From: Taklimakanibacter albus
GTDB taxonomy: Bacteria; Pseudomonadota; Alphaproteobacteria; Rhizobiales; Aestuariivirgaceae
Length of the DNA: 64,000 bases
NCBI RefSeq assembly: GCF_016595235.1
Contig: NZ_JAENHL010000003.1
Location: forward strand, 62,001 to 126,000
Direction: 5' to 3'
The translations under genes and the position numbers were made by a program. Under the pieces are notes generated by a model, which did not search any database, had not been told where the DNA came from, and saw only the letters and a list, made by a program, of their open reading frames with translations. This document shows, piece after piece, positions 371 to 42,529 of the stretch (the stretch's first letter is position 1; each line of letters starts with the position of its first letter).

Positions 371-385
371 TTAAGGTCTTGTTAA
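371..385. promoter_or_regulatory. Putative CtrA-type box (TTAA-N7-TTAA) upstream of parB
   Basis: TTAA, seven bases (ggtcttg), then TTAA, in the 75-base gap between parA and parB and 33 bases before the parB start. This matches the published CtrA full-site consensus of alphaproteobacteria. Two GATTC sites (347-351 and 392-396), which fit the GANTC target of the CcrM methylase, flank it. The same box occurs upstream of ftsK and ftsE in this window. Binding is inferred from the motif only. Confidence 0.55.
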
Positions 386-418
386 CCTTGTGATTCGCGC
401 GATTAGGGGCGCCAAAAG

Positions 419-1297
419 ATGATGATGACACAACCTCAGAAACGCCGGCTCGGCCGCGGCCTCGCCGCCCTCATCGGCGATGACACAACAGAAGAAGCGG
501 TGATGGAGGATGCGCGCAGCTTCCGCCATGTGCCGATCGAATTCCTGCATGCCAACCCCAATAACCCGCGCAAGCATTTCGCCGATGCCGATCTCGAGGA
601 CTTGACGCGCTCCATTCGCGACAAGGGCCTTCTGCAGCCTCTGGTCGTGCGCCAGCGCGACAATGGCGAATATGAGATCGTCGCCGGCGAGCGGCGCTGG
701 CGGGCGGCGCAACGCGCCGGCATCCACGAAGTGCCGGTGCTGATCCGCAGCCTCACCGATGGCGAGGCGCTGGAGATCGCGCTCATCGAAAATATCCAGC
801 GCGCCGATCTCAACGCGCTCGAGGAAGCCCGTGCCTATCAGCAGCTGATGGATCAGTTCAGCTACACCCAGCAGCAGCTTGCCGATTCGGTCGGCAAGAG
901 CCGCAGCCATGTCGCCAACACGATCCGCCTGTTGACGCTGCCCGAAAGTGTCCGCCGCCATATCGAGGACGGCGCGCTCACCGCCGGCCATGCGCGCGCC
1001 CTCGTCGCCACCGATTCACCGCAGGCGCTGGCCGAGAAGATCATCGAGCTCGGCATGACGGTGCGCGAGGCGGAAGGCCTGTCGCGCAGCGAAGCGGAAG
1101 CCAAGGGCAAGCCCCCCAGCACCGCCAAGGCGCAGAAGGACACCGATACGCTGGCGCTCGAAAAGCAGCTCGGCGAGCTGCTCGGCCTCAAGGTCGAAAT
1201 CGTCAACAAGGGCCGCGCCGGCGGCACGCTGACGGTACGCTACAAGACGCTCGAGCAGCTCGACGATGTCTGCAACCGCTTGGTCAGGGCGCCATAA
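419..1297 (+). CDS. parB: Chromosome partitioning protein ParB
   Basis: ParB/Spo0J family CTPase clamp, 292 residues, the usual length. It binds parS sites, spreads on DNA and partners ParA. The N terminus KRRLGRGLAALIGDD is the short ParA-interacting peptide. The CTP-binding domain contains GLLQPLVVR and the GERRWRAAQRAG motif (about residues 90-105). ENIQRADLNALEEA (about 123-136) and a helix-turn-helix around VGKSRSHVANTIRLL follow, and the C terminus is a dimerisation domain. The start is one of three consecutive methionine codons (MMM), so the exact first residue is uncertain. No 16-base parS palindrome was noticed in the window, so centromere sites must lie elsewhere. It converges on holA. 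Confidence 0.96.
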   Translation: MMMTQPQKRRLGRGLAALIGDDTTEEAVMEDARSFRHVPIEFLHANPNNPRKHFADADLEDLTRSIRDKGLLQPLVVRQRDNGEYEIVAGERRWRAAQRAGIHEVPVLIRSLTDGEALEIALIENIQRADLNALEEARAYQQLMDQFSYTQQQLADSVGKSRSHVANTIRLLTLPESVRRHIEDGALTAGHARALVATDSPQALAEKIIELGMTVREAEGLSRSEAEAKGKPPSTAKAQKDTDTLALEKQLGELLGLKVEIVNKGRAGGTLTVRYKTLEQLDDVCNRLVRAP

Positions 1298-1342
1298 TCA
1301 TCCGTATACGGACTGCCGTCGTTTTAACCAGTAAAATAGCGG

Positions 1343-2389
1343 CTAATCCCGAGCATTGTGGCGCTGCTGCAACGCCAGTCGCGCCAATGACAAGAAGGCG
1401 CGGTGGGTGATCTGATCGTTGAGCGCCGACAAGGTCGTGGTGCGGGTATCGCGTGTCGCCCGGCCGATCATGTCGGACGCGGCGAGCAGCGACTCGCCAT
1501 CCCAGAGCGACACCTGGCGCTGCAGCACCGGCTGCTGCTTGAAGAAAACCGGCGGGCGCGCCTGGCGCACCGCCATTTCGGGCGACTTGCCGCGCTCGAC
1601 GTCGACACGCAGCCGGGTGAGGCGCGCGGCATGACTGGCCGCCATGATGAGCAGCCCGGCGCCGCTCTGGCCTGAATCGCGCAAGCGCATGAAAGCCTCA
1701 TCGGCCGCGGCGAGCTGGCCGTCGAACACGGCGTTCATGAGATCGTCCGCCGACAGCTCCGCCACATCGCCGCACACCGCCTCGACATCGGCGAGCGTCA
1801 CCTGCGTCTTGCCATGGCAATAAAGCGCCAGCTTGGCGAGCTCCTGGCGCGACATGCGGCGATCGGCGCCGAGCAGATCAATCAGCGCCTGGCGGACCTC
1901 CATGTCGGTCGAGAGGCCCTTGGCGTCGAGCTCCTCGGCGATGAGGCGCTCGAGATCGATGGCCGAATCCTCATAACAGGGCACCGCCCACAGATGCGCC
2001 GCCGGCTCGAACATGGCGCGCAACCCCGCCGATTTGGCGAGCGCGCCGGCTTCGGCGACGATGAGATTGCCGGGCTTGTCCGGACTCAGCAGCGGCACCG
2101 CCTTGAGGAAGCCGCTGCCGGCATTCTCCACCCAGACGACGCGGCGGCCGCCGCCGAAGGAGAGAGCCTGCGTCTCATCGACGAGCCGGGCCGGATCGCC
2201 GGCGAGATCGGCATCATCGAGCCGGACCACCGCAAAGGGATCATCGATGCTGCCGGCGATGGATATCACGAGCTGGCGGGCGCGCTCCCGCACCGTGCCG
2301 CCATCCGGGCCATAGATCAAGACCGCGGATGCTTTCTCGGCATCGCGGCGCAGAAACCCGTCAAGGCCGGCCCATTTCAGAAGTGCCAT
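1343..2389 (-). CDS. holA: DNA polymerase III subunit delta
   Basis: HolA, the delta subunit of the clamp loader that opens the sliding beta clamp. The start chosen is the ATG at 2389 (MALLKWAGLDGFLRRD), giving 348 residues; the open frame runs 23 codons further upstream but through repeat-like DNA. Family features seen are LIYGPDGGTVRERA near the N terminus, the conserved segment VVWVENAG, and C-terminal SWDGESLLAASDMIGRAT typical of the delta collar domain. It lies downstream of lptE in the minus-strand block leuS-lptE-holA, a conserved order in Hyphomicrobiales, though 158 bases containing a palindromic repeat separate it from lptE. Confidence 0.93.
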   Translation of the reverse strand: MALLKWAGLDGFLRRDAEKASAVLIYGPDGGTVRERARQLVISIAGSIDDPFAVVRLDDADLAGDPARLVDETQALSFGGGRRVVWVENAGSGFLKAVPLLSPDKPGNLIVAEAGALAKSAGLRAMFEPAAHLWAVPCYEDSAIDLERLIAEELDAKGLSTDMEVRQALIDLLGADRRMSRQELAKLALYCHGKTQVTLADVEAVCGDVAELSADDLMNAVFDGQLAAADEAFMRLRDSGQSGAGLLIMAASHAARLTRLRVDVERGKSPEMAVRQARPPVFFKQQPVLQRQVSLWDGESLLAASDMIGRATRDTRTTTLSALNDQITHRAFLSLARLALQQRHNARD

Positions 2390-2408
2390 GACTTCACCAT
2401 CAATACCC

Positions 2409-2515
2409 TCATGCTGAGGTGGCCACGAAGCGGCCCTCGAAGCATGATCCAGGAACAAAGGTCGTGCCGCTTGCCACCCTTCGAGGCTCGCTTCGCTCGC
2501 ACCTCAGGGTGAGGG
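2409..2515. repeat. Extragenic palindromic repeat between lptE and holA
   Basis: An imperfect inverted repeat whose ends read CTGAGGTGG and CACCTCAG, with an inner pair of short arms (GAAGCGGCCCTCG against CGAGGCTCGCTTC). It fills most of the 158-base lptE-holA spacer. This style of repeat is common between genes in Rhizobiales. It may act as an attenuator between the two genes; no transposase is associated. Confidence 0.5.
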
Positions 2516-2547
2516 TTTTTGCCCGATCACCCATGCAAATCTCAAAG

Positions 2548-3051
2548 CTAACGCGCGAAATGCGCGGCGACCCGGGTGCGGATGTCGAGGGCGATTTCCT
2601 TGGCGCCGCGCTCGATCGCATTGGTGCGCGCCTGCATATTGGAGAAGGACTGGCCGACATCGTCATAAGAGACGTTGGAGAAGGTCTTGCCCTTATAGAC
2701 GACCGTGCCGCCATTCATGTCCTTGAGCTGGAAGCTCGCCGTCACCCTCACCGTCGAACGCCGGGCGGAACGGGAATCCGAAGAATCCTCGATCGAGCGG
2801 TCTTCGCTGGCCTTGGTCACGATCTCAAGCGAATAGCGGTCGGGTTCGGCGGTGCCGGCCGGGCGCATGGTCGAGAGCAGCTCGTTGCGGACGATCTGGT
2901 CGAGGCGCGTCTTGGGCTCGGGGATGGCCACCGAAGCGAGCTGGCCGGCGACGCCCGAGGATACGCCGTCGGTGCCGTAAAGCGGCCGCATACCGCAGGC
3001 GCCGAGCAGCACCAGCAACGGGACAATGGCCAGGATCCGCCAGGATTTCAT
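2548..3051 (-). CDS. lptE: LPS assembly lipoprotein LptE
   Basis: LptE, the outer-membrane lipoprotein plug of the LptD translocon. The 167-residue product starts with a lipoprotein signal (MKSWRILAIVPLLVLLGAC), with LGAC as lipobox and acylation at Cys19, followed by GMRPLYG, the signature of alphaproteobacterial LptE. The ATG at 3051 is preferred; a TTG at 3060 that overlaps the leuS stop would add three residues. The gene follows leuS almost without a gap, so the two are translationally linked, as in other Hyphomicrobiales. Similarity in this family is low outside the N terminus, so the call rests on signal, length and position. Confidence 0.88.
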   Translation of the reverse strand: MKSWRILAIVPLLVLLGACGMRPLYGTDGVSSGVAGQLASVAIPEPKTRLDQIVRNELLSTMRPAGTAEPDRYSLEIVTKASEDRSIEDSSDSRSARRSTVRVTASFQLKDMNGGTVVYKGKTFSNVSYDDVGQSFSNMQARTNAIERGAKEIALDIRTRVAAHFAR

Positions 3052-3056
3052 GGGAT

Positions 3057-5675
<2,619 letters not shown>

Positions 5676-5743
5676 TTAGCGGTTAAACGCGTTGGAAGTA
5701 CCAGCACTTGCAAAGCCCCGCAAGCCGCGTATATCGCCACGCC

Positions 5744-6448
5744 ATGAGCCGTCATCCCGCCCATCTCGACGTCCTTCCTCCCCATCCCGGCCTCACCGAT
5801 GTGCGCCAGCGCATCGCCGCCGCCGCAGCGGAAGCCGGCCGCCCGCTAGCCGACATCACCCTGGTCGCGGTCAGCAAGACCTTCGAGCCCGCGGCAATCG
5901 AGCCCGTCATCGAGGCCGGCCAGCGCGTCTTCGGCGAAAACCGGGTCCAGGAAAGCAAGGCCAAATGGCCGGAGCTCAAATCCCGCTTCGCCGGCATCAC
6001 GCTGCATCTGATCGGCCCGCTCCAGTCCAACAAGGCGGCCGAGGCGGTGGCGCTGTTCGACTGCATCCAGACCCTCGACCGCGAAAAGCTCGCCCGCGTC
6101 CTGGCCGACGAGATCCAGCGCCAGGGCCGGCAGCCCGACCTCTTCGTGGAGATCAACACCGGCGAGGAAGAGCAGAAAGCCGGAATCCGGCCCAGGGAGG
6201 CCGACCGCTTCATCGCCGCATGCCGCGACACCTATGGGCTCAAGATCGCGGGCCTCATGTGCATCCCGCCCGCCGATGAGGAGCCGGCGCTCCATTTCGC
6301 GCTGCTTGAGACGATCGCCAAGCGCAACGGCCTGAAGCAGCTCAGCATGGGCATGAGCGCCGATTTCGAAACGGCCATCCGCTTCGGCGCCACCCATGTG
6401 CGCGTCGGCTCGGCCATTTTCGGCGAGCGCTTCAAGAAGCTCGCGTGA
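5744..6448 (+). CDS. YggS-family pyridoxal-phosphate homeostasis protein
   Basis: YggS/PROSC (PLPBP) family protein of 234 residues, a single-domain PLP-binding TIM barrel that buffers cellular pyridoxal phosphate. The PLP lysine is in ITLVAVSKTFEP; other family signatures are GENRVQESKAKWPEL, LHLIGPLQSNKAAEA, KAGIRPREADRF and LSMGMSADFETAIRFGATHVRVGSAIFGER. The ATG at 5744 (MSRHPAHLD) is chosen over an upstream TTG at 5708. It is divergent from leuS with only 68 bases between the two starts. Confidence 0.95.
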   Translation: MSRHPAHLDVLPPHPGLTDVRQRIAAAAAEAGRPLADITLVAVSKTFEPAAIEPVIEAGQRVFGENRVQESKAKWPELKSRFAGITLHLIGPLQSNKAAEAVALFDCIQTLDREKLARVLADEIQRQGRQPDLFVEINTGEEEQKAGIRPREADRFIAACRDTYGLKIAGLMCIPPADEEPALHFALLETIAKRNGLKQLSMGMSADFETAIRFGATHVRVGSAIFGERFKKLA

Positions 6449-6751
6449 TCAGATCTCGCGGTGTGACGGCGGCATAGGCGGCGGTAGGGCCGCCATCGGG
6501 GTCGGACAGATGGAAAACACCGGCACTACCAAGGCCTGTAACGCGTGGCATCTGGTCTATGCGCCACAGCTCCTCGTGGTTGGCTCCGTAGGGTAATTTG
6601 ACGATCGTCGGCCGCGTCACACCAGCCGTCATCGGGCGCCATGAAACGCAATGGCGGGGCGGCGCGTAATTCTTGTGATGCCGTGGGAGGAGGCGGTTCA
6701 CCACAGGACGCGGGGCTTTTCAACAGGGGATCAGCCCCTTAAAACACCAAA
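6449..6751. other. Intergenic stretch with one doubtful minus-strand ORF
   Basis: About 300 bases between the yggS-like gene and the response regulator. The only sizeable frame is on the minus strand at 6432-6704 (up to 90 codons, overlapping the yggS-like 3' end by 17 bases). It reads VKLPYGANHEELWRIDQM and then GVFHLSDPDGG, which I do not recognise. It has no convincing ribosome-binding site, and other frames are open over parts of the stretch. It could be the tail of a decayed gene. No tRNA or riboswitch fold was seen. Confidence 0.3.
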
Positions 6752-6801
6752 GGGAGCAAATCCCGTCAAAGTTGAAGACTTTGGCGATGAGGATCTGCCC
6801 C
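6752..6801. repeat. Palindromic extragenic element (CAAAGTTG core)
   Basis: Fifty-base two-tier hairpin: outer arms GGGAGCAAATCC and GGATCTGCCCC, inner arms CAAAGTT and ACTTTG around a short loop. It is the same family as the elements at 18791-18840 and 50670-50718, which share the core GCCAAAGTTGC-GACTTTGGCG. It sits just upstream of the response regulator promoter region. Confidence 0.6.
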
Positions 6802-6865
6802 CATATTGAGCTGGCGCGAATCTCTTTCACCGCAATGCGCGCCAGGACTGGAGCACTATAGAGGC

Positions 6866-7561
6866 ATGGCAGGTACGAGCATGGTCATACGCATTCTCAT
6901 CATCGACGACGATGATGTCTTGCGCGACACGCTGAAGGAGCAATTCGCTCTGCAGGAGGAATTCGTGGTGAGCGATGCGCCCACCGCAACGGCCGGCCTC
7001 AAGCAACTCAAGGCCGAACCCGCCGATGTCGTGCTCCTCGACGTCAATTTGCCCGATATGGACGGGCGCGAGGCCTGCAAGGCAATGCGGCGCAACGGCC
7101 ATAAGGGCCCGGTCATCATGCTGACCGCCCAGACCTCCGATTCCGATACGATCCTCGGCCTCGATGCCGGCGCCAACGATTATGTCACCAAGCCGTTCCG
7201 CTTCGGCGTGCTGCTCGCCCGCATCAGGGCGCATCTGCGCCAGCACGAGCAGAGCGAGGATGCGGTGTTCCGGGTCGGGCCCTATACGTTCAAGCCCTCG
7301 GCCAAGCTGCTGGTGCGCGACGACGCCAAGAAGATCCGGCTCACCGAAAAGGAAACCGCGATCATCAAGTTCCTCTACCGGGCCGGCGAGCAGGTCATCG
7401 GGCGCGACACGCTGCTCCATGATGTGTGGGGCTACAATGCCGGGGTCACCACTCATACGCTCGAGACCCATATCTACCGCTTGCGCCAGAAGATCGAACG
7501 CGACCCCTCGCATGCCGAGATCCTGGTGACCGAAGCCGGCGGCTATAAGCTGGTTCCCTAG
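6866..7561 (+). CDS. OmpR/PhoB-type response regulator
   Basis: Two-domain response regulator, 231 residues. The receiver domain (about 6-122) has the acidic cluster IIDDDDVL, the phospho-acceptor aspartate in VVLLDVNLPDMDG, the conserved Thr in IMLTAQTS and Lys in YVTKPFRFG. The C-terminal winged helix (about 140-230) ends ETHIYRLRQKIERDPSHAEILVTEAGGYKLVP, typical of OmpR-like DNA binding. The ATG at 6866 is preceded by AGAGG; MVIRILIID at 6881 is an alternative start. No sensor kinase lies next to it, so the input is unknown. Next comes a cyclic-nucleotide-binding protein gene, about 100 bases on. Confidence 0.93.
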   Translation: MAGTSMVIRILIIDDDDVLRDTLKEQFALQEEFVVSDAPTATAGLKQLKAEPADVVLLDVNLPDMDGREACKAMRRNGHKGPVIMLTAQTSDSDTILGLDAGANDYVTKPFRFGVLLARIRAHLRQHEQSEDAVFRVGPYTFKPSAKLLVRDDAKKIRLTEKETAIIKFLYRAGEQVIGRDTLLHDVWGYNAGVTTHTLETHIYRLRQKIERDPSHAEILVTEAGGYKLVP

Positions 7562-7663
7562 ACCGCTTACGGTTCCTGTTTCCACAGGGACTTTTCCCTT
7601 GATTCGGCCAACGTGGTAGTGAGGGAACGGGGACGATTCGCGCATAGGGGAAGCGCGCCGGTC

Positions 7664-8140: not shown

Positions 8141-8143
8141 CTT

Positions 8144-8799: not shown

Positions 8800-8806
8800 A
8801 TTGGTC

Positions 8807-8846
8807 GTTGTAGGTTAAATATTACTATGTGTCAACTAAATATTAC
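8807..8846 (-). promoter_or_regulatory. Toxin-antitoxin promoter with direct-repeat operator
   Basis: On the minus strand: -35 TTGACA (8835-8830), a 17-base spacer, and -10 TACAAC (8812-8807). The -10 ends seven bases before the toxin ATG at 8799, so the transcript is expected to start at or next to the ATG (leaderless). Two identical ten-base direct repeats, GTAATATTTA on the minus strand (8846-8837 and 8825-8816), lie 21 bases apart, two helical turns, and flank the -35. They are the probable autorepressor sites. The stretch is strikingly AT-rich for this window. Confidence 0.65.
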
Positions 8847-8903
8847 AGTTGGCAGCGAATTGCGCGGCCCTCCCAGCGTTTCGACGGCGCGCGAGATCTC
8901 GCC

Positions 8904-9713: not shown

Positions 9714-9755
9714 GGGGGCCCTCATGCCCGCCGGGCCGGCGTCAGGCAAGAGGGC

Positions 9756-10841: not shown

Positions 10842-13409
10842 TCAATCCCGCGCGCTATCCCCCGGCACCAGGATTTCGCGCTTGCCGGTGGCGTTGGCCG
10901 ACGAGATCAGGCCTTCCTTCTCCATCCGCTCGATGAGGCTCGCGGCCTTGTTGTAGCCGATCTGCAGGCGGCGTTGGATATAGCTGGTGGACACCTTCTT
11001 GTCGCGCAAGACCACCGCGACCGCCTGGTCGTAAAGATCGTCGCCCGAACCGCCGCCCTCGCCCGCAGCACCGCCCGAGCCCGGCTCGCCATAGGCCTCG
11101 TCCGGCTCCTCGGTGATCGCCTCGATATATTCGGGGGCGCCCTGCTTCTTGAGTGAGCGCACGATCTTCTCGACCTCGTCGTCGGAAACGAAAGGACCAT
11201 GGAGACGCGAGATGCGACCGCCGCCCGCCATGTAGAGCATGTCGCCTTGGCCTAAGAGCTGCTCGGCGCCCTGCTCGCCCAGGATGGTGCGGCTGTCGAT
11301 CTTGGACGTCACCTGGAAGGAGATGCGGGTCGGGAAGTTCGCCTTGATGGTGCCGGTGATGACGTCGACGGACGGACGCTGGGTGGCCATCACGACATGG
11401 ATGCCGGCGGCGCGCGCCATCTGCGCCAGGCGCTGCACCGCGCCTTCGATGTCCTTGCCCGCCACCATCATGAGGTCGGCCATCTCGTCGATGATCACGA
11501 CGATGTAGGGCATCGGCGACATGTCCATCTCTTCGCGCTCGAAGATCGGCTCGCCGGTCTCGGGATCGAAGCCGGTCTGCACGGTGCGCGACATCGCCTC
11601 GCCCTTCTCGCGCGCCTGCTCGAGCCTGGCGTTGAAGCCGTCGATATTGCGCACGCCGACCTTCGACATCTTGCGATAGCGGTCTTCCATCTCGCGCACC
11701 GCCCATTTGAGCGCCACCACCGCCTTGCGCGGATCGGTGACGACGGGGGCGAGCAGATGCGGGATGCCTTCATAGACCGAAAGCTCGAGCATCTTGGGAT
11801 CGATCATGATCAGCTTGCAGCGCTCCGGCGTATGCCGATAGAGCAGCGACAGGATCATGGTGTTGATGCCGACCGATTTGCCGGAGCCGGTGGTGCCGGC
11901 GATGAGCAGATGCGGCATGCGGGCAAGATCGGCGAAGACCGGCTCGCCGCCGATATTCTTGCCGAGCGCCATAGCGAGGTTCTGATTGGTCTTCTCGAAG
12001 GCCTCGGAGCCCAGAAGCTCGCGCAGATACACCGTTTCGCGCTTGGGGTTGGGCAATTCGATGCCGATGGCGTTGCGACCCGACACCACCGCGACGCGGG
12101 CCGAGATGGCGCTCATCGAACGCGCAATGTCGTCGGCAAGGCTGATGACGCGCGACGACTTGATGCCGGGCGCCGGCTCGAGCTCATAGAGCGTCACGAC
12201 GGGGCCGGGCTTCACATTGACGATCTGGCCGCGGACGCCGAAATCCTCGAGCACGCCTTCAAGGGCGCGGGCATTCTGCTCCAGCGTTTCCGGCGACAGG
12301 TCGATGGCGCGGCCGACCTTCTTGGGCTCGGCGAGCAGCGTCAGCGGCGGCAGCTCATATTCGCTGGCGGCGCGCTGCTTCTTGCCGGGCTTCGCCTGCT
12401 TGATGACCGGATCGTTGCGCGGGCTCACGCGGCGCGACGCGGCGGCGGCCGGCGTCTCGTCGGCTTCGTCGTCGGCCTCCTCTTCCTCGATCTCTTCGCC
12501 GGCTTCCTCTTCCAGCTCGATATCGACGTCGTCTTCCGCTTCGGCGGAAGGAAGCTTCAGCCAGGGCGGGTTATCCTGTTTGTCCTGCGCCGCGGCCCTG
12601 CCCTTCTTCGCGGCCTTGCCGTCGAGACGCGGCTCGACGCGCGCCCCTGACTTGCGGGCCGGCGCCGTGGCCGCTACCTGGCGCGCCTGGAAGGCCTTGT
12701 CCTGCGCCTTCAGATCGCGATGCATGCGCCAGCGCTGATAGAGAGTGTGCAGCAGATTCCACAGGCTCGTCGCAGCCCAGCGGATGTAATAGCCGAGTGC
12801 CGCCGAGAACGCGCCGTCGGAGCGGCTGAGGCCCGCCGCATTGGCGCCGGTGAGGACGGCGCCGAAGCCGAACAGAGCCGCGGCGACGAGCGAGGCGAAG
12901 AAACCCTTGAAGCCGAGATTGAGCAGCGTGAGCAGCGCCGATTTCAACACCTCGCCGGTCTGGCCGCCGAAGCCCGCTTCGAGCGCGAAGCTTTCAGGCG
13001 CCGGCATCATGGCGAGGAAGGCGGAGAAGGTGATGACGAACAGGATCCAGGCGAAGAACGAACGGATCGGGCGGATGACCGGCCGATGCGTCATCAGCCG
13101 CATGCTCCACAAAAGCGGCAAAGCGATCACCGCGATGACGCCAAGGCCGAACATCTGCATCAGCTGGTCGGAGATGACGGCGCCCGGATAGCCGAGAAGA
13201 TTGCTCGGATCGCCGTCGACGGCGCGGCTCAAGGACGGATCGGTCGGCGACCAGGTGGCGAGCGCCACGCCGATGCCGGCACACAGCGCGAAGCACAGAA
13301 AACCGATGAACTCCATCAGGCGGTTGCGCAGGAAGCGGCGTATGGCCGCCGGTACGGCGCCGTCGTCCGTGTCGATTGGATGCTCGATAGCCATGCGCCG
13401 GCCCGCCAT
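10842..13409 (-). CDS. ftsK: DNA translocase FtsK
   Basis: FtsK/SpoIIIE translocase that clears chromosome dimers at the division septum; 855 residues. The N-terminal third has four or five membrane segments ([31 protein letters not shown] and others). A long acidic and alanine-rich linker follows ([19 protein letters not shown]), then the alpha-beta motor with Walker [11 protein letters not shown] (about residue 505) and Walker [15 protein letters not shown]. The C-terminal gamma winged helix ([24 protein letters not shown]) reads KOPS sequences. The ATG at 13409 is used; 13394 (MAIEHPID) is equally possible, as neither has a clear ribosome-binding site. A CtrA-type box lies upstream. Confidence 0.97.
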
Positions 13410-13465
13410 GGGGAACCCCGTCTTGCGTGATAAGAATAGTTAACGCGGAGTCTGGCGGGACGTGG

Positions 13466-13480
13466 TTAAAGTGGGGTTAA
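13466..13480. promoter_or_regulatory. Putative CtrA-type box upstream of ftsK
   Basis: TTAA, seven bases (agtgggg), TTAA; 56 bases upstream of the ftsK start. An extra TTAA half site is at 13440-13443, and a GAGTC (GANTC, CcrM-type) site at 13448-13452. Same consensus as at 371-385 and 42515-42529. Binding by CtrA is inferred. Confidence 0.55.
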
Positions 13481-13544
13481 GTCTTATGAATTTGCGCGGG
13501 ATTGGCGCGAAAAACCGGCATCCACTTTTTCGCATCCCGCGCAT

Positions 13545-34472: not shown

Positions 34473-34513
34473 ACTGGCAAGATCAAAAATTCCGGCGCTT
34501 AAGAGCCGCGGGG

Positions 34514-35128: not shown

Positions 35129-35362
35129 ACTCCGTCTCCCTTACAAACTCTGTGCTGCCTGCCGGCAATCTCGTGGAGATTCTGCTGCTCGCTCCCAATC
35201 GGGCGGCGTCCGCCCGGGCAGGAAGCAACCTGCGAAGGGTGCGCCGTGCGGTGCACAATTGCAAGCGCAAAAAGAATATCCATGTTAGCCGAAAGCGCGC
35301 ATTGCAACGCCCGCGAGAGTCGGGCTTAATGTTCCCGATCCCAGCATTGGAGACCCTTTTTC

Positions 35363-36550
35363 ATGGCTAATTCTGAGAATTCCGTCGTCATCGTCTCGGC
35401 CGCGCGGACCCCTGTCGGGTCGTTCAACGGCGCCCTGTCGAGCCTTTCCGCCCATGCGCTGGGCGCCGTCGCGCTCAAGGCCGCCATGGCGCGCGCCAAG
35501 GTCGAGGCGAAGGAAGTCGATGAGATCATACTGGGTCAGATCCTGACCGCCGGCCAGGGCCAGAACCCGGCCCGCCAGGCCTCGATCGGCGCCGGAATTC
35601 CGGTCGAAAGCCCGGCCTGGGGCATCAACCAGCTGTGCGGCTCGGGGCTCCGGGCGGTCGCTCTGGGCCTTCAGCAGATCGCCAATGGCGATGCGAAGAT
35701 CATCGCCGCGGGCGGCCAGGAATCGATGTCGATGGCGCCGCACTGCCAGCATTTACGCAATGGCGTGAAGATGGGCGACTTCCAGATGATCGACACGATG
35801 ATCAAGGACGGCCTGTGGGACGCCTTCAATGGCTATCACATGGGCAACACGGCCGAGAATGTCGCGCGCCAGTGGCAGATCACCCGCGACACCCAGGATA
35901 ATTTCGCGGTCGCCTCGCAGAACAAGGCGGAAGCGGCCCAGAAGGCCGGCAAGTTCAAGGACGAGATCGTCCCCGTCACCATCGCCTCACGCAAGGGCGA
36001 CATCGTCGTCGACCAGGACGAATATATCCGTCATGGCGCGACGCTCGACCAGCTCGCCAAGCTCCGGGCGGTGTTCCAGAAGGACGGCACCGTCACCGCC
36101 GGCAATGCCTCGGGCATCAATGACGGCGCCGCGGCGGTCATCCTGATGAGCGCCAAGGACGCCGAGAAGCGCGGCCTCGAGCCGCTCGCCCGCATCGTCT
36201 CCTGGGCCAATGCCGGCGTCGATCCCGCCATCATGGGATCGGGCCCGATCCCGGCGTCGCGCGCGGCGCTGAAGAAAGCCGGCTGGAAGGTCGAGGATCT
36301 CGATCTCATCGAGGCCAATGAAGCCTTCGCGGCGCAGGCCTGCGCCGTCAACAAGGATATGGGCTGGAACAGCGATATCGTGAATGTGAATGGCGGCGCC
36401 ATCGCCATCGGCCATCCGGTCGGCGCCTCGGGTGCCCGCGTTCTGGTCACGCTGCTGCATGAAATGGGCAAGCGCAAGTCGAAGAAGGGCCTCGCCACGT
36501 TGTGCATCGGCGGCGGCATGGGCATCGCGATGTGTGTCGAGCGGGCGTAA
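35363..36550 (+). CDS. phaA: Acetyl-CoA acetyltransferase (beta-ketothiolase)
   Basis: A 395-residue biosynthetic thiolase condensing two acetyl-CoA to acetoacetyl-CoA, the first step to polyhydroxybutyrate. The acyl-enzyme Cys is in [15 protein letters not shown], the catalytic His in [12 protein letters not shown], and the second Cys in [17 protein letters not shown]. Full length. First gene of phaA-phaB, 44 bases apart, with phaR divergent. Confidence 0.97.
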
Positions 36551-36594
36551 GACCCGAGGGCATACGAGGTTTCTTACAGAAGGGGTGAGGAAAT

Positions 36595-37320
36595 ATGGGA
36601 CGAGTTGCTGTCGTAACCGGCGGAACCCGCGGTATCGGTGCGGCCATCGCCAAGGCGCTCAAGCAAGAGGGCTATCAGGTGGTGGCCAGCTATGCCGGCA
36701 ATGACGAAGCGGCCAATAAATTCAAGGCCGAGACCGGCATCGCGGTCAGGAAATGGGATGTCGGCAATTACGACGCCTGCGCCAGCAATCTCAAGGCGAT
36801 CGAAGCCGAGCTCGGGCCGGTCGACGTCCTGGTCAACAATGCCGGCATCACCAAGGACGGCATGTTCCACAAGATGACGTCCGATCAGTGGTATCAGGTG
36901 ATCAACACCAATCTCAACTCGCTGTTCAACATGTGCCGGCCGTTGATCGAAGGCATGCGCGAGCGGGGCTTCGGCCGTATCATCAACATCTCCTCGATCA
37001 ACGGGCAGAAGGGCCAGATGGGGCAGGTGAATTATTCCGCCTCCAAGGCCGGCGATATCGGCTTCACCAAGGCGCTGGCGCAGGAGAATGCCAAGAAAGG
37101 CATCACCGTCAACGCCATCTGCCCCGGCTATATCGCCACCGAGATGGTGATGGCTGTCCCTAAAGACGTGCTCGAAAAGTCGGTCATCCCGCATATCCCG
37201 GTCGGCCGGCTCGGCCAGCCGGAGGAAGTGGCGCGCTGCGTCGTGTTCCTGGCGTCGGATCACTCCGGCTTCATCACCGGCTCGGTGCTCACCGCCAATG
37301 GCGGGCAGTATATGGTGTGA
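36595..37320 (+). CDS. phaB: Acetoacetyl-CoA reductase
   Basis: A 241-residue NADPH-dependent SDR making (R)-3-hydroxybutyryl-CoA. Cofactor motif VVTGGTRGIGAAIAKAL, NNAG in VLVNNAGITKDGMFHKM, catalytic Ser in INISSINGQKGQMGQVNYSASKAG with Tyr and Lys. The FHKM and GQ segments are typical of PhaB over FabG. Operon with phaA. A ribosome-binding GGGGTGAGG precedes the ATG. No PHA synthase gene is in the window. Confidence 0.96.
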   Translation: MGRVAVVTGGTRGIGAAIAKALKQEGYQVVASYAGNDEAANKFKAETGIAVRKWDVGNYDACASNLKAIEAELGPVDVLVNNAGITKDGMFHKMTSDQWYQVINTNLNSLFNMCRPLIEGMRERGFGRIINISSINGQKGQMGQVNYSASKAGDIGFTKALAQENAKKGITVNAICPGYIATEMVMAVPKDVLEKSVIPHIPVGRLGQPEEVARCVVFLASDHSGFITGSVLTANGGQYMV

Positions 37321-37328
37321 TGCAAATT

Positions 37329-37464
37329 TACCCTCCCCCTTGCGGGGAGGGTCGGCCTGTAGGGCCGGGTGGGGGTCGCTCATCTCCATCAGTATACAGA
37401 TCAACTTGTCGGCGGTACCGTCAGACCCCCACCCCTGACCCCTCCCCACAAGGGGGAGGGGAAA
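37329..37464 (+). repeat. 136-base GC-rich extragenic repeat, copy 1
   Basis: Begins TACCCTCCCCCTTGCGGGGA and ends CCCACAAGGGGGAGGGGAAAT, with facing inner blocks GGGTGGGGGTC and GACCCCCACCCCTGACCCC around a variable loop of about 45 bases. Outer ends are inverted, so the whole unit can fold. Copies at 43255-43391 (same strand) and 55374-55511 (minus). All three point with the purine-rich end towards the next gene. No coding content. Confidence 0.85.
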
Positions 37465-37475
37465 TCGAGGCCTCA

Positions 37476-38348
37476 TTGTCGCGCAGCACCGCCACGCTCA
37501 TCGGCTTCACCGCCGTCCTCATGTGGGCGGTGCTGGCGTTCCTCACGGCGGCGAGCGGCCAGGTGCCGCCGTTCCAGCTCGCCGCGATGACTTTCCTGAT
37601 CGGCGGTTTGCTCGGCGTCGCCACCTGGCCGTTCCGCAAGGGTGTCGTTGCGTCCATGCCGCGCAGCTGGCGGGTCTGGCTGCTCGGCATCGCCGGCCTG
37701 TTCGGCTATCACTTCGTCTATTTCACCGCCATCCGCTCCGCCCCGCCGGTCGAGGTGAGCCTGCTGGCCTATCTCTGGCCGCTTTTTCTCGTCGCCTTTT
37801 CGGCGCTGCTGCCGGGCGAGAAGCTCAAGGTTCATCACATTCTGGGCGTCATCATCGGCCTTCTGGGCGCGGCGCTGGTCATCACCCGCGGCCAGGGTTT
37901 CACGCTTGCGCAAGGCTTCGGCCTCGGCCACGCGCTCGGTTTTTCCTGCGCCATCATCTGGGCCGCCTATTCGGTCCTGTCGCGGCGCTTCGGCAATGTA
38001 TCGACCGATGTGGTGGCGGGCTTCTGCCTGATCACCTCGGCGCTGGCGTTTCTCTGCCATCTTCTGTTCGAGGCGACGGTGTGGCCCGAAGGCCAAAGCC
38101 AGTGGCTGGCGATACTGGGGCTCGGCCTGTTTCCGGTGGGGGCGGCTTTCTACAGCTGGGACCTCGGGGTCAAGCGCGGCGACATCATGGCGCTGGGCGC
38201 CTCGTCCTATGCGTCGCCGCTGCTGTCGACCTTGGTCCTGATGCTGGCGGGCTTCGCGCCCTATCACTGGTCGATATTCGTCGCCTGCCTGCTCATCACC
38301 GCGGGCGCCGTCATCGCTGCGAAGGACATGATCTTCAGACGACGCTGA
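37476..38348 (+). CDS. EamA-family (DMT) transporter
   Basis: A 290-residue drug/metabolite transporter with ten hydrophobic segments in two EamA repeats (STATLIGFTAVLMWAVLAFLTAASG, LGFSCAIIWAAYSVLSRRF and others). The likely start is the TTG at 37476, just behind the repeat; the frame runs back to 37317 through the repeat, which would give a non-family Pro/Gly-rich N terminus. The GAGG before TTG, next to the purine-rich repeat end, serves as ribosome-binding site. Closest in pattern to YddG-like aromatic amino-acid exporters, but the substrate cannot be told. Confidence 0.88.
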   Translation: MSRSTATLIGFTAVLMWAVLAFLTAASGQVPPFQLAAMTFLIGGLLGVATWPFRKGVVASMPRSWRVWLLGIAGLFGYHFVYFTAIRSAPPVEVSLLAYLWPLFLVAFSALLPGEKLKVHHILGVIIGLLGAALVITRGQGFTLAQGFGLGHALGFSCAIIWAAYSVLSRRFGNVSTDVVAGFCLITSALAFLCHLLFEATVWPEGQSQWLAILGLGLFPVGAAFYSWDLGVKRGDIMALGASSYASPLLSTLVLMLAGFAPYHWSIFVACLLITAGAVIAAKDMIFRRR

Positions 38349-38352
38349 TGCG

Positions 38353-38778
38353 TCAGTGCGGCGCCCAGTCCTTCGGCGCCAGCTCGAAGCCGTCGAAGGC
38401 GAAGGCCGGTGACACGGTGCAGCTCGACAGCGTCCAGGCGCCTTGCGAGCGCGCCGTCTGCCAGCAGAAGCGCGGCACGATCACTTGCGGGCGCTGGCCC
38501 TGCGCCAGATCGCTGCCCAGCTGATGCAGATCGACATGGCGGCCGTCATGCGAGAGTCCCAGCTCCAAGGGCGCGCCCGCATGCCAGTGCCAGATCTCGT
38601 CGGCATCAATCCGGTGCCAGTGGCTGATCTCGCCTTCGCACAGGAGGTAATAGATCGCGGTCCCCTCGGAGCGCTCGCCCAGCGCGGCATCGGCACGCCA
38701 AGTCTCGCGATAATGGCCGCCCTCCGGATGCGGTTTCAGATCCAGAAGGCGGATGATATCGCCAGGGGTCAGCGTCAT
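38353..38778 (-). CDS. DUF985 cupin-domain protein
   Basis: A 141-residue single-domain cupin of the DUF985 type: LDLKPHPEGGHYRETWRAD, AIYYLLCEGEISHWHRIDADEIWHWHAGAPLEL (metal-type HxH residues) and QVIVPRFCWQTARSQGAWTLSSCTVSPAFAFDGFEL. Enzymatic role unknown in general. It overlaps the stop of the glyoxalase II gene by four bases, so the pair is co-translated. Convergent with the DMT transporter gene. Confidence 0.93.
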   Translation of the reverse strand: MTLTPGDIIRLLDLKPHPEGGHYRETWRADAALGERSEGTAIYYLLCEGEISHWHRIDADEIWHWHAGAPLELGLSHDGRHVDLHQLGSDLAQGQRPQVIVPRFCWQTARSQGAWTLSSCTVSPAFAFDGFELAPKDWAPH

Positions 38779-39548
38779 CTGAAAGCGTCTTTGCGTTTCC
38801 GGACCTCGGCGAAGACATCGGCGTTGCTCGCCATCGACATGGCCAGCACCGAGCGGATCTCCTTGCTTTCGGGCCTGAGGAAGACATTGGTGTCGAGCTC
38901 CTCGCCGATCGTGCCGGGCAAGGTCATCTCCTTCTTGGCGCGCTGCGCCTTGATCTTGTCGGCGCGCTTCACGAGCTTGTCATTGCCGGGCTCGATGGTG
39001 AGCGCGAAGCGGGCGTTGGATTCGGTATATTCATGGCCGCAATGGAAGAGTGTGTCGCGCGGCAGCTTGCGCAGTTTGTCGAGCGAGGTCCACATCTCGG
39101 CAAGCGTGCCTTCGATCACCCGGCCGCAGCCGAGCGCGAACAAGGTGTCGCCGGCGAAGAGCAGCTTCTCCTCGGGGAGATGCAGCACGATATGACCCAG
39201 CGTGTGGCCGGGCGTCGCGATGACCTTAACCTCGCGTCCGGCGAAATCGTAGGATTCGCCGCCCGCCACCTGTTTGTCGATGCCGGGGATCTGCGGGGCT
39301 TCCGCCTTGGGGCCGATGATCGTCACCCCCCATTTCTTCTTGAGGGCGAGATTGCCTTCGACATGGTCGATATGGTGGTGGGTGGTCAGGATATGGGTGA
39401 GCTTCCAGCCCTTGCGCTCCAGCTCGCGCTCGATGGCCGGGGCTTCGGGGGCATCGATCGTGGCGGTCTGGCCGGTTGCGCTGTCATGCACGAGGACGCC
39501 ATAATTGTCGTCGCGGCAGATGAAATGATGGAGTTCAAGTTTCGGCAA
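38775..39548 (-). CDS. gloB: Hydroxyacylglutathione hydrolase (glyoxalase II)
   Basis: A 257-residue metallo-beta-lactamase-fold hydrolase that frees D-lactate from S-lactoylglutathione. Metal motif THHHIDHVEGN, then ATPGHTLGHI, FAGDTLFALGCGRV, HCGHEYTESNARFA and C-terminal NVFLRP, the full GloB set. It starts with TTG at 39548 (MPKLELHHFICRDDNYG), preceded by AGAGGAAA. Divergent from the methyltransferase gene, with 66 bases between starts. Confidence 0.96.
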   Translation of the reverse strand: MPKLELHHFICRDDNYGVLVHDSATGQTATIDAPEAPAIERELERKGWKLTHILTTHHHIDHVEGNLALKKKWGVTIIGPKAEAPQIPGIDKQVAGGESYDFAGREVKVIATPGHTLGHIVLHLPEEKLLFAGDTLFALGCGRVIEGTLAEMWTSLDKLRKLPRDTLFHCGHEYTESNARFALTIEPGNDKLVKRADKIKAQRAKKEMTLPGTIGEELDTNVFLRPESKEIRSVLAMSMASNADVFAEVRKRKDAFR

Positions 39549-39614
39549 TAGCGTATTTCCTCTGATCGAAATTGGCGCGTGACCCTGGGCCCCGGAATAC
39601 CTATCTTTCCCACA

Positions 39615-40352
39615 ATGGATGTAGCCGATCTACGTGAATTTTACACAAGCCGGCTCGGCCAGGCGACCCGCCGGCTGATCGCGCATCGCTTGCGCGACCG
39701 CTTCGGCGACCTGACCGGCGCCACCGTGCTGGGCTTGGGCTTTGCCACCCCCTATCTCGATTATCCGGCCGACGGGGCGGAACGCAGCCTCGTCTTCATG
39801 ATGGCGCAGAGGGGCGTGCTGCACTGGCCGGAAGGCCAGCCCAATGCCGCCGCCTTGGTCGAGGAATGCGAATTGCCGCTGCTCGAAAGCACGGTCGATT
39901 TCGCCCTCGTCATCCATGGGCTCGAGCTTACCGACCAGCCGACCGAGATGCTGCAGGAGATCTGGCGGGTGATGTCGCCGCAGGGCCGCCTGGTCATGGT
40001 GGTGCCGAACCGGCGTGGGCTGTGGGCGCGCTCCGACGCGACGCCTTTCGGCTACGGCCAGCCCTATTCGCGCTCGCAATTGCAGCAGTCGCTCAAGGAG
40101 GCGAAATTCTCGCCCGTCGGCTGGTCGCAGGCTTTGTTCATGCCGCCCTCCGAGCGTGGGCTCATGCTCAAATCGGCGGCCGCCTGGGAGCGGCTCGGGC
40201 TCAAGACGTCGCCCGCCTTTTCCGGCGTCATCATCGTCGAGGCGGTCAAGCAGGTTTATGCCGTCTCGACCCGCAAACGCTCGCGCCGCATGCTGCCGCG
40301 GCTCAGGCCGGCGCTCGCCTCCTTCGATGTGAAGTTGCCGCGTTTCAAATGA
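39615..40352 (+). CDS. Class I SAM-dependent methyltransferase
   Basis: A 245-residue methyltransferase-like protein: MDVADLREFYTSRLGQATRRLI, glycine-rich region TVLGLGFATPYL, DFALVIHGLELTDQPTEMLQEIWRVMSPQGRLVMVVPNRRGLW and FMPPSERGLMLKSAAAWERLGL. It starts at the ATG 39615; a GTG at 39579 is possible. Found divergent from gloB in many Hyphomicrobiales, but its substrate is not known. The next gene starts within its stop codon (ATGA). Confidence 0.88.
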   Translation: MDVADLREFYTSRLGQATRRLIAHRLRDRFGDLTGATVLGLGFATPYLDYPADGAERSLVFMMAQRGVLHWPEGQPNAAALVEECELPLLESTVDFALVIHGLELTDQPTEMLQEIWRVMSPQGRLVMVVPNRRGLWARSDATPFGYGQPYSRSQLQQSLKEAKFSPVGWSQALFMPPSERGLMLKSAAAWERLGLKTSPAFSGVIIVEAVKQVYAVSTRKRSRRMLPRLRPALASFDVKLPRFK

Positions 40353-41107
40353 GCGGACATCCTTTCGCGCTCAACGGCAAGACGGCGCTGGTCACCGGTG
40401 CGGGACGTGGGCTCGGCCTCGCCATCGCCAAGGCGCTGGCGCAAGCGGGCGCCTCCGTGCTGCTCAATGGCCGCACCGAAGCGCCACTCGCCGAAGCCGC
40501 CCGGCAGATCACCGCCGATGGCGGCGCCGCGTCGGTGCTCGCTTTCGACGTCACCGATCAAAGGCAAGTGGAAGCGGCCTTCGCGCGGATCGTGGATCTC
40601 GACATCCTCGTCAACAATGTCGGCCTGCGCGATCGCCGTCCGGTCTTTGATTTCTCGTTGGAAGATGTGCGCAAGCTCATCGAGGCCGATCTCATCGCGC
40701 CCTTCGAGCTCGGCCGGCGCGCCGCGAAGCTGATGATCGATAAGAAGCGCGGTGGCCGCATCATCAACATCACCTCGATCGCGGGGCTGATCGCCAACAA
40801 GGGTGACGCAGTCTATACGACGGCGAAGGGCGGCCTCATGGCGCTGACCCGCGCGCTCGCGGCCGAGCTCGGGCCCAAGGGCATCACCGTCAATGCGGTG
40901 GCGCCGGGCTTTTTCGCGACGGAAACCAATGCCAAGCTGACGGCCGATCCGCGCGTCGCCGAATGGCTCAAGGCGCGCACCGCGCTCGGCCGCTGGGGCA
41001 AGCCCGACGAAGCGGCAGGCGCTGTCGTGTTTCTCGCCTCACCGGCCGCGTCTTATGTCACCGGCCATATGCTGGCGGTCGACGGCGGCTATCTCACGCA
41101 TTTTTAG
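40349..41107 (+). CDS. SDR family oxidoreductase
   Basis: A 252-residue classical short-chain dehydrogenase: cofactor motif VTGAGRGLGLAIAKAL, NNVG in DILVNNVGLRDRRPV, catalytic Ser in INITSIAG, and YTTAKGG with Tyr and Lys. Similar to gluconate 5-dehydrogenase-like SDRs, but function is not fixed. The start overlaps the methyltransferase stop by four bases, hence coupled. Followed by a hairpin shared with the convergent hpt gene. Confidence 0.92.
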   Translation: MSGHPFALNGKTALVTGAGRGLGLAIAKALAQAGASVLLNGRTEAPLAEAARQITADGGAASVLAFDVTDQRQVEAAFARIVDLDILVNNVGLRDRRPVFDFSLEDVRKLIEADLIAPFELGRRAAKLMIDKKRGGRIINITSIAGLIANKGDAVYTTAKGGLMALTRALAAELGPKGITVNAVAPGFFATETNAKLTADPRVAEWLKARTALGRWGKPDEAAGAVVFLASPAASYVTGHMLAVDGGYLTHF

Positions 41108-41108
41108 G

Positions 41109-41155
41109 GCGCATCAGCTTATCCGAAAAGCCTGCAACTTTTCGGGCTGATGCGT
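41109..41155. terminator. Two-tier hairpin between convergent genes
   Basis: Outer arms GCGCATCAGC and GCTGATGCGTC, inner arms CCGAAAAG and CTTTTCGG around CCTGCAA. It fills the 49-base gap between two convergent stops (41107 and 41157) and so may act as a bidirectional terminator. Its architecture resembles the CAAAGTTG-core palindromes elsewhere in the window. Confidence 0.6.
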
Positions 41156-41156
41156 C

Positions 41157-41708
41157 TCATTTCGCGGTCAGCACGTGGCCGACGAAAGGCAGCTCACGGA
41201 ACTGATGCGCCATGTCCATGCCGTAGCCGACGACGAATTTGTCGGGGCAGACGAAGCCGCGGTGATCGGCTTCGATATCGGCGGCGAGATGGCCGGGCTT
41301 TTCGAGGAGCACTGCGGTCGAAACGCTGCGGGCGCCGCGCGCGGCGAGCAGGTCTTTTGCAAAGGCCAGCGTGCGCCCGGATTCGAGGATGTCGTCGATC
41401 AGCAATATGTCGCGGTCCTCGATCGGCGATTCGACGTCACGCAATATTTCGACCTGGCCGGACGAGCGGGTCTTGTCGCGATAGCTCGCCAGCATCATGA
41501 AATCGACCTCGGGCGACAGGCGGGCGCGATGCATGGCGCGGATGAGATCGGCGGCGAAGACGAAGCTTCCTTTCAGCACCGGCACCACCAGCAGGCGGTG
41601 CGGCCGCTTCTCGGCAATGGCTTGGGCGATCGTTTCGATGCGCTCGGAGATCTGGGCTTCGGAGAACAACACCGCGATGCGGTGGCCGTCTATTTCAATA
41701 TGGCTCAT
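41157..41708 (-). CDS. hpt: Hypoxanthine phosphoribosyltransferase
   Basis: A 183-residue purine salvage enzyme: IAVLFSEAQISERIETIAQAI, VVPVLKGSFVFAADLIRAM, PRPP-binding ILLIDDILESGRTLAFAKDLL and VVGYGMDMAHQFRELPFVGHV. It converts hypoxanthine and guanine to IMP and GMP. Its start overlaps the stop of the zinc-ribbon gene by four bases, a linkage kept in relatives. Confidence 0.96.
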   Translation of the reverse strand: MSHIEIDGHRIAVLFSEAQISERIETIAQAIAEKRPHRLLVVPVLKGSFVFAADLIRAMHRARLSPEVDFMMLASYRDKTRSSGQVEILRDVESPIEDRDILLIDDILESGRTLAFAKDLLAARGARSVSTAVLLEKPGHLAADIEADHRGFVCPDKFVVGYGMDMAHQFRELPFVGHVLTAK

Positions 41709-42439
41709 GGCCCGGGATTTACGCCAATTTCATCGGCATGGGCAAAGCGAATCTGCACGTTTTCGGCGGTTTCCGGCGGCGAAGCGACGCGGGTGGTGAA
41801 GGTCGTCATTTCGCCCGGACGCAAGGGCCGGATGCCGGAATCGAGCGTCCAGGCATAGACGTCGGCCGCCTCCTTGTCCTTGAGGACGAACCGCAGGGAA
41901 GGCACCTTGCGGTCCTCGTCGCTGACATTGACGATCTCGCCTTTGATCGAGATGACGCGGGTGCCCCCGACCACCACATGCTGCTGCTCGACGCGGCGCA
42001 CTTCGAGGCCGTAGATATTCACCTTCATGCCGGCCCGGTCGAAGACCTGGATGCTGGCGGGGAAGAGACGCACCGTCCTCTCCGGCATGGCGAAGGCGGC
42101 GATGAAGGGTGTCAGCGCCACGGCGGCGAAAGCGCCCCAGCCGGCAAGCTGGCGGCGGCGGCGGCGCTGCGCCTGAACGAATTCCTCCTGGGCTAGGCGC
42201 GCCGCCTCGGTCAGGCGTCGGATCTCGCGGTCTTCGTCGGGGCGGGGCTCACCGATGGGGGCCGGAACATGGGACGCCGCGGCGGGAATGGGCTTGGCCG
42301 CAATCTCGATGACCTCGACCGGTCGGCTCTCGATCCAGTTGTGGCCGCATTCGGCGCAACGCACCATGGTCCCGCTGGCCGAAAAGCGCGAAGCGGGGAA
42401 GTCATAGCGAGTTGCGCAAGCGGGGCAGGCGACTATCAT
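41705..42439 (-). CDS. MJ0042-type zinc-ribbon membrane protein
   Basis: A 244-residue protein. N-terminal zinc ribbon MIVACPACATRYDFPAS ... MVRCAECGHNW (two CxxC pairs), a charged linker, one membrane helix (LAGWGAFAAVALTPFIAAFAM) and a C-terminal domain of about 110 residues ending VRIRFAHAD-like (VQIRFAHADEIGV), comparable to the DUF3426 region found with this ribbon. Role unknown. Divergent from ftsE with a CtrA-type box between them. The ATG at 42439 starts the ribbon; the longer frame is ignored. Confidence 0.85.
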   Translation of the reverse strand: MIVACPACATRYDFPASRFSASGTMVRCAECGHNWIESRPVEVIEIAAKPIPAAASHVPAPIGEPRPDEDREIRRLTEAARLAQEEFVQAQRRRRRQLAGWGAFAAVALTPFIAAFAMPERTVRLFPASIQVFDRAGMKVNIYGLEVRRVEQQHVVVGGTRVISIKGEIVNVSDEDRKVPSLRFVLKDKEAADVYAWTLDSGIRPLRPGEMTTFTTRVASPPETAENVQIRFAHADEIGVNPGP

Positions 42440-42514
42440 CCGGAGCGTGCCGTCAAAAACGATTCGAGACCGGTCTATCGGTCCTATGGTCTTGAAGATT
42501 AACCGCAAACAGGG

Positions 42515-42529
42515 TTAAGGCGGCGTTAA
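42515..42529. promoter_or_regulatory. Putative CtrA-type box upstream of ftsE
   Basis: TTAA, seven bases (ggcggcg), TTAA; 36 bases before the ftsE start and 75 bases before the start of the divergent zinc-ribbon gene. A further TTAA stands at 42499-42502. Same spacing as the boxes upstream of parB and ftsK. Confidence 0.55.

What the first reader, a model, noticed from the sequence alone, without database searches (positions are those of the whole stretch)
371..42529. Perfect CtrA-type boxes before parB, ftsK and ftsE and nowhere else
TTAA-N7-TTAA occurs at 371-385 (parB), 13466-13480 (ftsK) and 42515-42529 (ftsE). By composition (about 18% each A and T) such an eight-base pattern is expected about 0.1 times in 64 kb. 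All three hits lie 33-60 bases upstream of cell-cycle genes, and I found no other. CtrA is the established cell-cycle master regulator of alphaproteobacteria, but a joint partition-translocase-divisome regulon including parB and ftsK would be worth testing. GANTC methylation sites accompany two of the boxes.
Basis: partly seen in the sequence, partly recalled or inferred. Interest (0 to 1): 0.75.

Follow-up and report, generated by a model that had tools for sequence, protein, structure and literature searches.

The report
CtrA sites before cell-cycle genes
Three matches to the binding site of CtrA, the cell-cycle switch protein of alphaproteobacteria, sit just upstream of the genes parB, ftsK and ftsE; two are sites of a known kind, while the one before the chromosome-partition gene parB looks like a newer wiring that turns up in only a few lineages.

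Summary
In detail: the window has exactly three TTAA-N7-TTAA sites (shuffle mean 0.03), 33, 56-71 and 36 nt before parB, ftsK and ftsE. The host, a Taklimakanibacter relative, encodes CtrA, GcrA and a RAMA-domain protein. N7 is the preferred spacing genome-wide (24 of 54 TTAA pairs of spacing 3-11). Upstream position proves little: pairs of other spacings are upstream equally often. Conservation is the stronger evidence: the box precedes ftsE in 19 of 37 relatives and ftsK in 15 of 33 (about 0.2 expected each). Both are reported or predicted CtrA targets elsewhere, so these two are ordinary. The parB box is patchy: 9 of 119 genomes, 3 of 47 families, but in all 5 genomes held of this genus and all 3 sampled of a distant one, so it probably arose more than once; my searches found no report of it. 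Here it follows an older element, GANTC-N4-CCG-N-AA, conserved in the parA-parB spacer (19 of 89 spacers, 11 families; 0.03 expected). My reading: CtrA controls all three genes and may repress a methylation-responsive parB promoter. Binding and direction are inferred, not shown.

The parts
371..385 (.). CtrA-type full site TTAAGGTCTTGTTAA in the parA-parB spacer, 33 nt before parB
   Evidence: present in 5 of 5 genomes held of the genus
347..365 (+). Conserved parA-parB spacer element GATTCGTTACCGCAACAAA (GANTC at 347-351), proposed parB core promoter
   Evidence: GANTC-N4-CCG-N-AA in 19 of 89 spacers, 11 families, resampling mean 0.03, max 1
392..396 (.). Second GANTC (GATTC) just after the parB box, kept in 5 of 5 genus genomes
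419..1297 (+). parB
   Evidence: TIGR00180, 9e-58
1..343 (+). 3' end of parA (named from its sequence and position; no profile search was run on it)
   Evidence: sequence; upstream ORF in L298
13466..13480 (.). CtrA-type full site before ftsK (gene strand: TTAACCCCACTTTAA followed by CCA)
   Evidence: box in 15 of 33 usable ftsK upstream regions
13448..13452 (.). GANTC between the ftsK box and the third TTAA
   Evidence: kept in 5 of 5 genus genomes
13440..13443 (.). Third TTAA before ftsK, kept in 5 of 5 genus genomes
10842..13409 (-). ftsK
   Evidence: NF007615, 4.2e-170
42515..42529 (.). CtrA-type full site TTAAGGCGGCGTTAA before ftsE
   Evidence: box in 19 of 37 ftsE upstream regions, 7 of 17 families
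42499..42502 (.). Third TTAA, 12 nt before the ftsE box; this N12 spacing occurs in 9 of 37 ftsE regions
42461..42465 (.). GANTC (GATTC) upstream of the ftsE array
   Evidence: kept in 5 of 5 genus genomes
42566..43225 (+). ftsE
   Evidence: TIGR02673, 2.2e-83
43410..44315 (+). ftsX-like gene following ftsE
   Evidence: TIGR00439, 2.9e-21, below the curated cut-off
41705..42439 (-). Zinc-ribbon (ZitP-like) gene divergent from ftsE, sharing its control region

Best explanation
The three sites are binding sites for CtrA. At ftsK and ftsE (the latter in a divergent control region shared with a zinc-ribbon gene) they are inherited sites of the CtrA regulon, probably used to switch these division genes on with the CtrA pulse. 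At parB a CtrA site has been added in this genus, right behind an older conserved GANTC element in the parA-parB spacer. If that element is the core of a parB promoter, with GATTC between -35 and -10 and a start near 372, the box 371-385 covers the start point; CtrA would then hold parB off while CtrA is high, and methylation and replication timing would set when it fires. Shown: the sites, the spacing preference, the conservation, the presence of CtrA, GcrA and a RAMA-domain protein. Inferred: CtrA binding (about 0.85 likely), repression of parB rather than activation (about 0.45 against 0.35), methylation control.
For:: 3 sites, shuffle mean 0.03; own genome has 54 TTAA pairs of spacing 3-11, 24 of them N7; the reversed control AATT has 337, 37 of them N7, as expected without preference (binomial P 6e-10 against 0.56); the encoded CtrA aligns almost unchanged over the receiver domain with solved CtrA 4qpj (its DNA-binding half was not compared with a solved CtrA); one GcrA and one RAMA-domain protein; box before ftsE in 19 of 37 and before ftsK in 15 of 33 genomes; every other spacing from 0 to 15 is in 0-2 regions per gene, except the ftsE N12 array (9); parB box in 5 of 5 genus genomes and 3 of 3 sampled genomes of a genus in family f12, where the seven middle bases vary but both TTAA stay.: minC has two boxes in this genome. 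Passages: B. abortus CtrA binds the ftsE and minC promoters (PMC2877005); Caulobacter ftsK is among the CtrA-motif promoters (PMC4287350); H. neptunium CtrA regulates ftsAKQZ (PMC7200025).
Against: There are no binding or expression data here. In S. meliloti ftsK2 is reported as an indirect target (PMC11500502), and the main text of the S. meliloti CtrA ChIP paper contains none of the words ftsK, ftsE, parB (PMC4433202; supplements not read). 110 of 119 parB regions lack a box; 18 of 37 ftsE and 18 of 33 ftsK regions lack a perfect box. ctrA itself has an N9, not an N7, pair upstream. Many of the 24 N7 sites adjoin genes with no evident cell-cycle role. No sigma-70 consensus promoter was found at parB or ftsK (ftsE not scanned), so the start near 372 rests on analogy. 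In the passages seen of the A. tumefaciens CcrM paper parB occurs only as a reporter or homologue (PMC11514494).
Confidence: 0.8

Rival explanations
1. At parB, CtrA activates rather than represses: the box is the upstream part of a second, CtrA-dependent promoter with its -10 near 399-405, so parB can be made apart from parA.
For: In Caulobacter, start sites with full CtrA motifs are active only in predivisional cells (passage); that activating sites lie near -35 is recalled. In G001 an insert of about 111 nt separates parA and the GATTC from the box, yet box and downstream GATTC remain, so the box is kept without the upstream element beside it.
Against: Beyond the GATTC the region after the box is poorly conserved in the genus and no consensus promoter was found. 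A start near 411 would leave a leader of under 10 nt.
Confidence: 0.35
2. Chance or composition: AT-rich promoter DNA gives TTAA pairs, and the gene names make them look meaningful.
For: TTAA pairs of any spacing are mostly upstream of genes in this genome: 19 of 24 N7, 23 of 29 others. Many of the 24 N7 sites adjoin genes with no evident cell-cycle role. Three of 24 in one 64 kb stretch has P 0.001, but the stretch was picked after the fact.
Against: N7 is about 6-fold commoner than the mean other spacing and the box recurs before orthologues in other families.
Confidence: 0.06
3. Another winged-helix response regulator, not CtrA, uses these sites.
For: The genome has 29 Trans_reg_C matches, 27 over the cut-off; one of them, a regulator with a degenerate receiver, has its own N7 box upstream (L018).
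Against: TTAA-N7-TTAA is the published CtrA site (passages) and CtrA is present. ftsE and minC match B. abortus CtrA targets.
Confidence: 0.08

Closest known systems
CtrA regulon of Caulobacter crescentus (full TTAA-N7-TTAA sites; PMC4287350, passages and one section seen)
   Same: Same site, same regulator, ftsK among the targets
   Different: Neither parB nor ftsE occurs in that main text
CtrA targets in Brucella and Sinorhizobium (ftsE, minC bound in B. abortus, PMC2877005; motifs predicted before ftsE, ftsK and minC in S. meliloti, PMC3616915; passages seen)
   Same: ftsE and minC boxes, same order of bacteria, ftsK motif
   Different: parB does not occur in either main text; S. meliloti ftsK2 is called an indirect target
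CcrM-methylated ftsZ and mipZ promoters of Caulobacter, with conserved GANTC also before ftsE (PMC3708114, passages seen)
   Same: Conserved GANTC before a cell-cycle gene
   Different: Here the conserved GANTC element is before parB and in Hyphomicrobiales; that paper says ftsZ and mipZ promoters of Rhizobiales seldom contain GANTC

Membership tests
CtrA regulon | Full site TTAA-N7-TTAA near the gene start | tested here: met
CtrA regulon | Organism encodes CtrA | tested here: met
CtrA regulon | Spacing of exactly 7 preferred genome-wide | tested here: met
   24 of 54 pairs of spacing 3-11
CtrA regulon | Site conserved before orthologous genes | tested here: met
   ftsE 19 of 37, ftsK 15 of 33; parB 9 of 119 in 3 of 47 families, so met for parB only within those lineages
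CtrA regulon | CtrA binds the site and expression depends on CtrA | not testable with these tools
   needs ChIP, EMSA or depletion
CcrM/GcrA-controlled promoter (parB spacer element) | GANTC conserved at the promoter | tested here: met
   extended element in 19 of 89 spacers, resampling mean 0.03. GANTC alone is weaker evidence: 41 of 89 spacers, resampling mean 23.7, max 34, while a same-composition control word (TCNGA) is in 33 of 89 and the six others in 7-17
CcrM/GcrA-controlled promoter (parB spacer element) | GANTC between -35 and -10 of a mapped start | tested here: inconclusive
   no consensus promoter found; start not mapped
CcrM/GcrA-controlled promoter (parB spacer element) | Genome encodes GcrA and CcrM | tested here: met
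   one GcrA; one RAMA-domain protein, the domain that rings only in Caulobacter among the 14 controls; that it is CcrM is inferred

The most novel reading that the evidence does not exclude
parB in many Hyphomicrobiales has its own promoter built on a conserved, CcrM-methylated GANTC element in the parA-parB spacer, and CtrA control has been laid on top of parB independently in at least two lineages (the Taklimakanibacter genus and a genus of family f12, with a possible third in f9). Supply of the centromere protein would then be timed by replication-coupled methylation and by CtrA, apart from parA.
Probability: 0.3. Interest if true: 0.65.

Novelty: new member of a known kind. Interest (0 to 1): 0.45.

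Why it matters
CtrA links replication, division and polarity in alphaproteobacteria, but its targets shift between lineages. Separate gains of CtrA sites before parB would put chromosome partition directly under the same switch. The conserved GANTC element in the parA-parB spacer is a testable candidate for what methylation does in this order, a question that PMC3708114 leaves open (passage).

Tried and rejected
Position upstream of genes as evidence: rejected, since TTAA pairs of other spacing are upstream just as often. The genome count against the tool's reversed control (24 against 37) first suggested no enrichment; the spacing series showed why, as AATT pairs are about six times commoner overall. 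A first parB count relied on a parA-end pattern that failed in 11 of 119 genomes, family f12 among them; I redid it on fixed 200-nt regions. The parB GATTC element as a genome-wide promoter motif: 5 matches to GATTCNNNNCCGNAAC in the own genome (control 0); besides parB, three lie inside ORFs and one upstream of a binding-protein-like ORF, so no regulon is seen. Element or box in other orders: neither in the 29 loci read; 57 genomes were searched, 54 matched including the own one, and 24 matches were not read. Link between the divergent zinc-ribbon gene and the ftsE box: none (box in 11 of 19 with the gene, 8 of 18 without; Fisher P 0.52). The L018 regulator as CtrA: rejected, no solved-structure match at 1e-20; CtrA is L169. 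Promoter consensus scans found nothing at parB or ftsK. Passages of PMC7987155, PMC6399470, PMC3973325, PMC3885167 and PMC5182063 gave no parB regulation by CtrA or CcrM.
Full report
Observation. The window holds three TTAA-N7-TTAA sites and no other, at 371-385, 13466-13480 and 42515-42529; 100 shuffles gave a mean of 0.03. ParB, FtsK and FtsE are named by profile search. The boxes lie 33 nt before the parB ATG, 56 or 71 nt before the two possible ftsK starts, and 36 nt before the likely ftsE ATG.

Host. The window is G000:C3:62001-126000 of a 7.17 Mb genome in 9 contigs. Its nearest relatives by ParB among the named records are 'Rhizobiales bacterium Y(2018)' (99%), an unnamed alphaproteobacterial MAG (91%) and Taklimakanibacter lacteus (90%). 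It encodes CtrA, whose receiver domain aligns almost without change to solved CtrA 4qpj, one GcrA and one RAMA-domain protein, the domain found in CcrM (the CcrM link is recalled).

Is it more than base composition? The whole genome has 24 N7 sites, three of them here. Among TTAA pairs with spacing 3 to 11 there are 54, 24 of them N7; the reversed control has 337, 37 of them N7. The N7 share is 44% where 11% is expected, and the control sits on expectation. So seven is a preferred spacing, as for CtrA in the published work (passages). Position does not discriminate: by a crude gene caller trained on window genes, 19 of 24 N7 sites and 23 of 29 others (29 of 30; one was cut from the listing) lie within 300 nt upstream of a gene; 2 of each overlap coding, 3 and 4 are elsewhere. 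Other N7 sites adjoin minC (two boxes), L,D-transpeptidase and M15-peptidase genes, a DUF1465 gene, a FecR-domain gene, a regulator with a degenerate receiver, yebC, hpf, and several genes without an evident cell-cycle role.

Conservation of the ftsE and ftsK boxes. I searched 40 genomes, the own one included, and read upstream regions. ftsE: 37 regions (three genomes had no match at the threshold), 19 with the box, in 7 of 17 families; resampling gives 0.2. N7 stands out against every other spacing save N12, the third half-site (9 regions). ftsK: 33 usable regions, 15 with the box, in 3 of 15 families; resampling over 34 regions gives 0.24. Seven genomes were set aside for ftsK: three without a fetched match, four whose reading frame runs off the contig. 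ftsK starts are uncertain where the N-terminus diverges. In the genus alignment the ftsK block (box, GANTC, third TTAA) is nearly invariant. These are known or predicted targets: B. abortus CtrA binds the ftsE promoter (passage in PMC2877005); S. meliloti has predicted motifs before ftsE, ftsK and minC (passage in PMC3616915); Caulobacter ftsK is among the CtrA-motif promoters (passage in PMC4287350); H. neptunium CtrA regulates ftsAKQZ (passage in PMC7200025). Against: ftsK2 of S. meliloti is called indirect (passages in PMC11500502), and the S. meliloti ChIP paper's main text contains none of the three names (word search in PMC4433202; supplements not read).

The parB box. Over 119 genomes of the order in 47 families (one match at a contig edge and three genomes without a match are not among them) the box is within 200 nt upstream of parB in 9 genomes and 3 families; resampling gives 0.35 families, and 3 or more in 2 of 300 rounds. 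It is in 5 of 5 genomes held of the genus, 3 of 3 sampled of one genus in family f12, and the one genome of f9. Other spacings from 0 to 15 occur in at most one genome each. In f12 the seven middle bases differ between genomes while both TTAA and the following CCAGT are kept. ParB of these two families is 48-49% identical to the window's, so separate gains are likelier than shared descent. No box was seen in 29 loci of other orders. Paper searches for CtrA, GcrA or CcrM together with parB gave no report of parB as a target in the listings and passages I saw; most subscription papers are not in that library.

An older element in the same spacer. After the parA stop many genomes carry GANTC-N4-CCG-N-AA. 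It is in 19 of 89 spacers, in 11 families, against 0.03 by resampling. GANTC alone is in 41 of 89 against 23.7, which is weaker: the control word TCNGA is in 33 of 89 (of 108 spacers with a found parA end, those under 20 nt and G001 were dropped). In 200-nt regions a looser form occurs in 29 of 119 genomes, 15 families (no resampling done for it). Its distance from the parA stop varies, so it is not coding carry-over. In Caulobacter, promoters with GANTC between -35 and -10 form a cluster activated at 40-60 min (section 17 of PMC4287350 read), and ftsZ, mipZ and ftsE have conserved GANTC sites there (passages in PMC3708114).

Model. If GATTC 347-351 sits between -35 and -10, the start falls near 372, under the box 371-385, as at the Caulobacter ctrA P1 and P3 promoters, which CtrA represses through a site in the -10 region (passage). 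CtrA would then hold parB off when high. The rival is activation from a start downstream of the box. In G001 an insert carrying a repeat splits the GATTC from the box, and the box is kept, which favours the rival somewhat. Sequence alone does not decide it.

Verdict. Three CtrA-type sites: two ordinary, one (parB) a lineage-specific addition of moderate interest.

Noticed in passing
347-365 and parA-parB spacers of relatives: Conserved GANTC-N4-CCG-N-AA element in the parA-parB spacer in 11 families of the order; possible CcrM-responsive parB promoter.
   Followed up: partly
41705-42439 (-): Zinc-ribbon gene divergent from ftsE; its N-terminus matches the solved zinc ribbon 2nb9 (E 4.7e-07; recalled to be Caulobacter ZitP). 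A CPxC zinc-ribbon ORF is divergent from ftsE in 19 of 37 genomes.
   Followed up: partly
13507-13538: Copy of a short palindromic repeat about 26 nt beyond the ftsK box, absent there in G001; a similar repeat sits in the parA-parB spacer of G001.
   Followed up: partly
whole window: GANTC is depleted about threefold: 118 sites against 342 in shuffles.
   Followed up: no
L169 973-989: ctrA's upstream region has a TTAA-N9-TTAA pair and a GAGTC rather than an N7 site.
   Followed up: no
L006 1501-1554: Two N7 boxes in tandem directly before minC.
   Followed up: no
L018 4145-4924 (-): OmpR-type regulator with a weak receiver match and an N7 box followed by CCAT upstream; possibly a CtrA-controlled secondary regulator.
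   Followed up: no
L340 (G130), parA-parB spacer: A genome of another order has CTCCGTTAAGGTCTTG in its parA-parB spacer, nearly the left half of this window's box and its flank, without the right TTAA.
   Followed up: no
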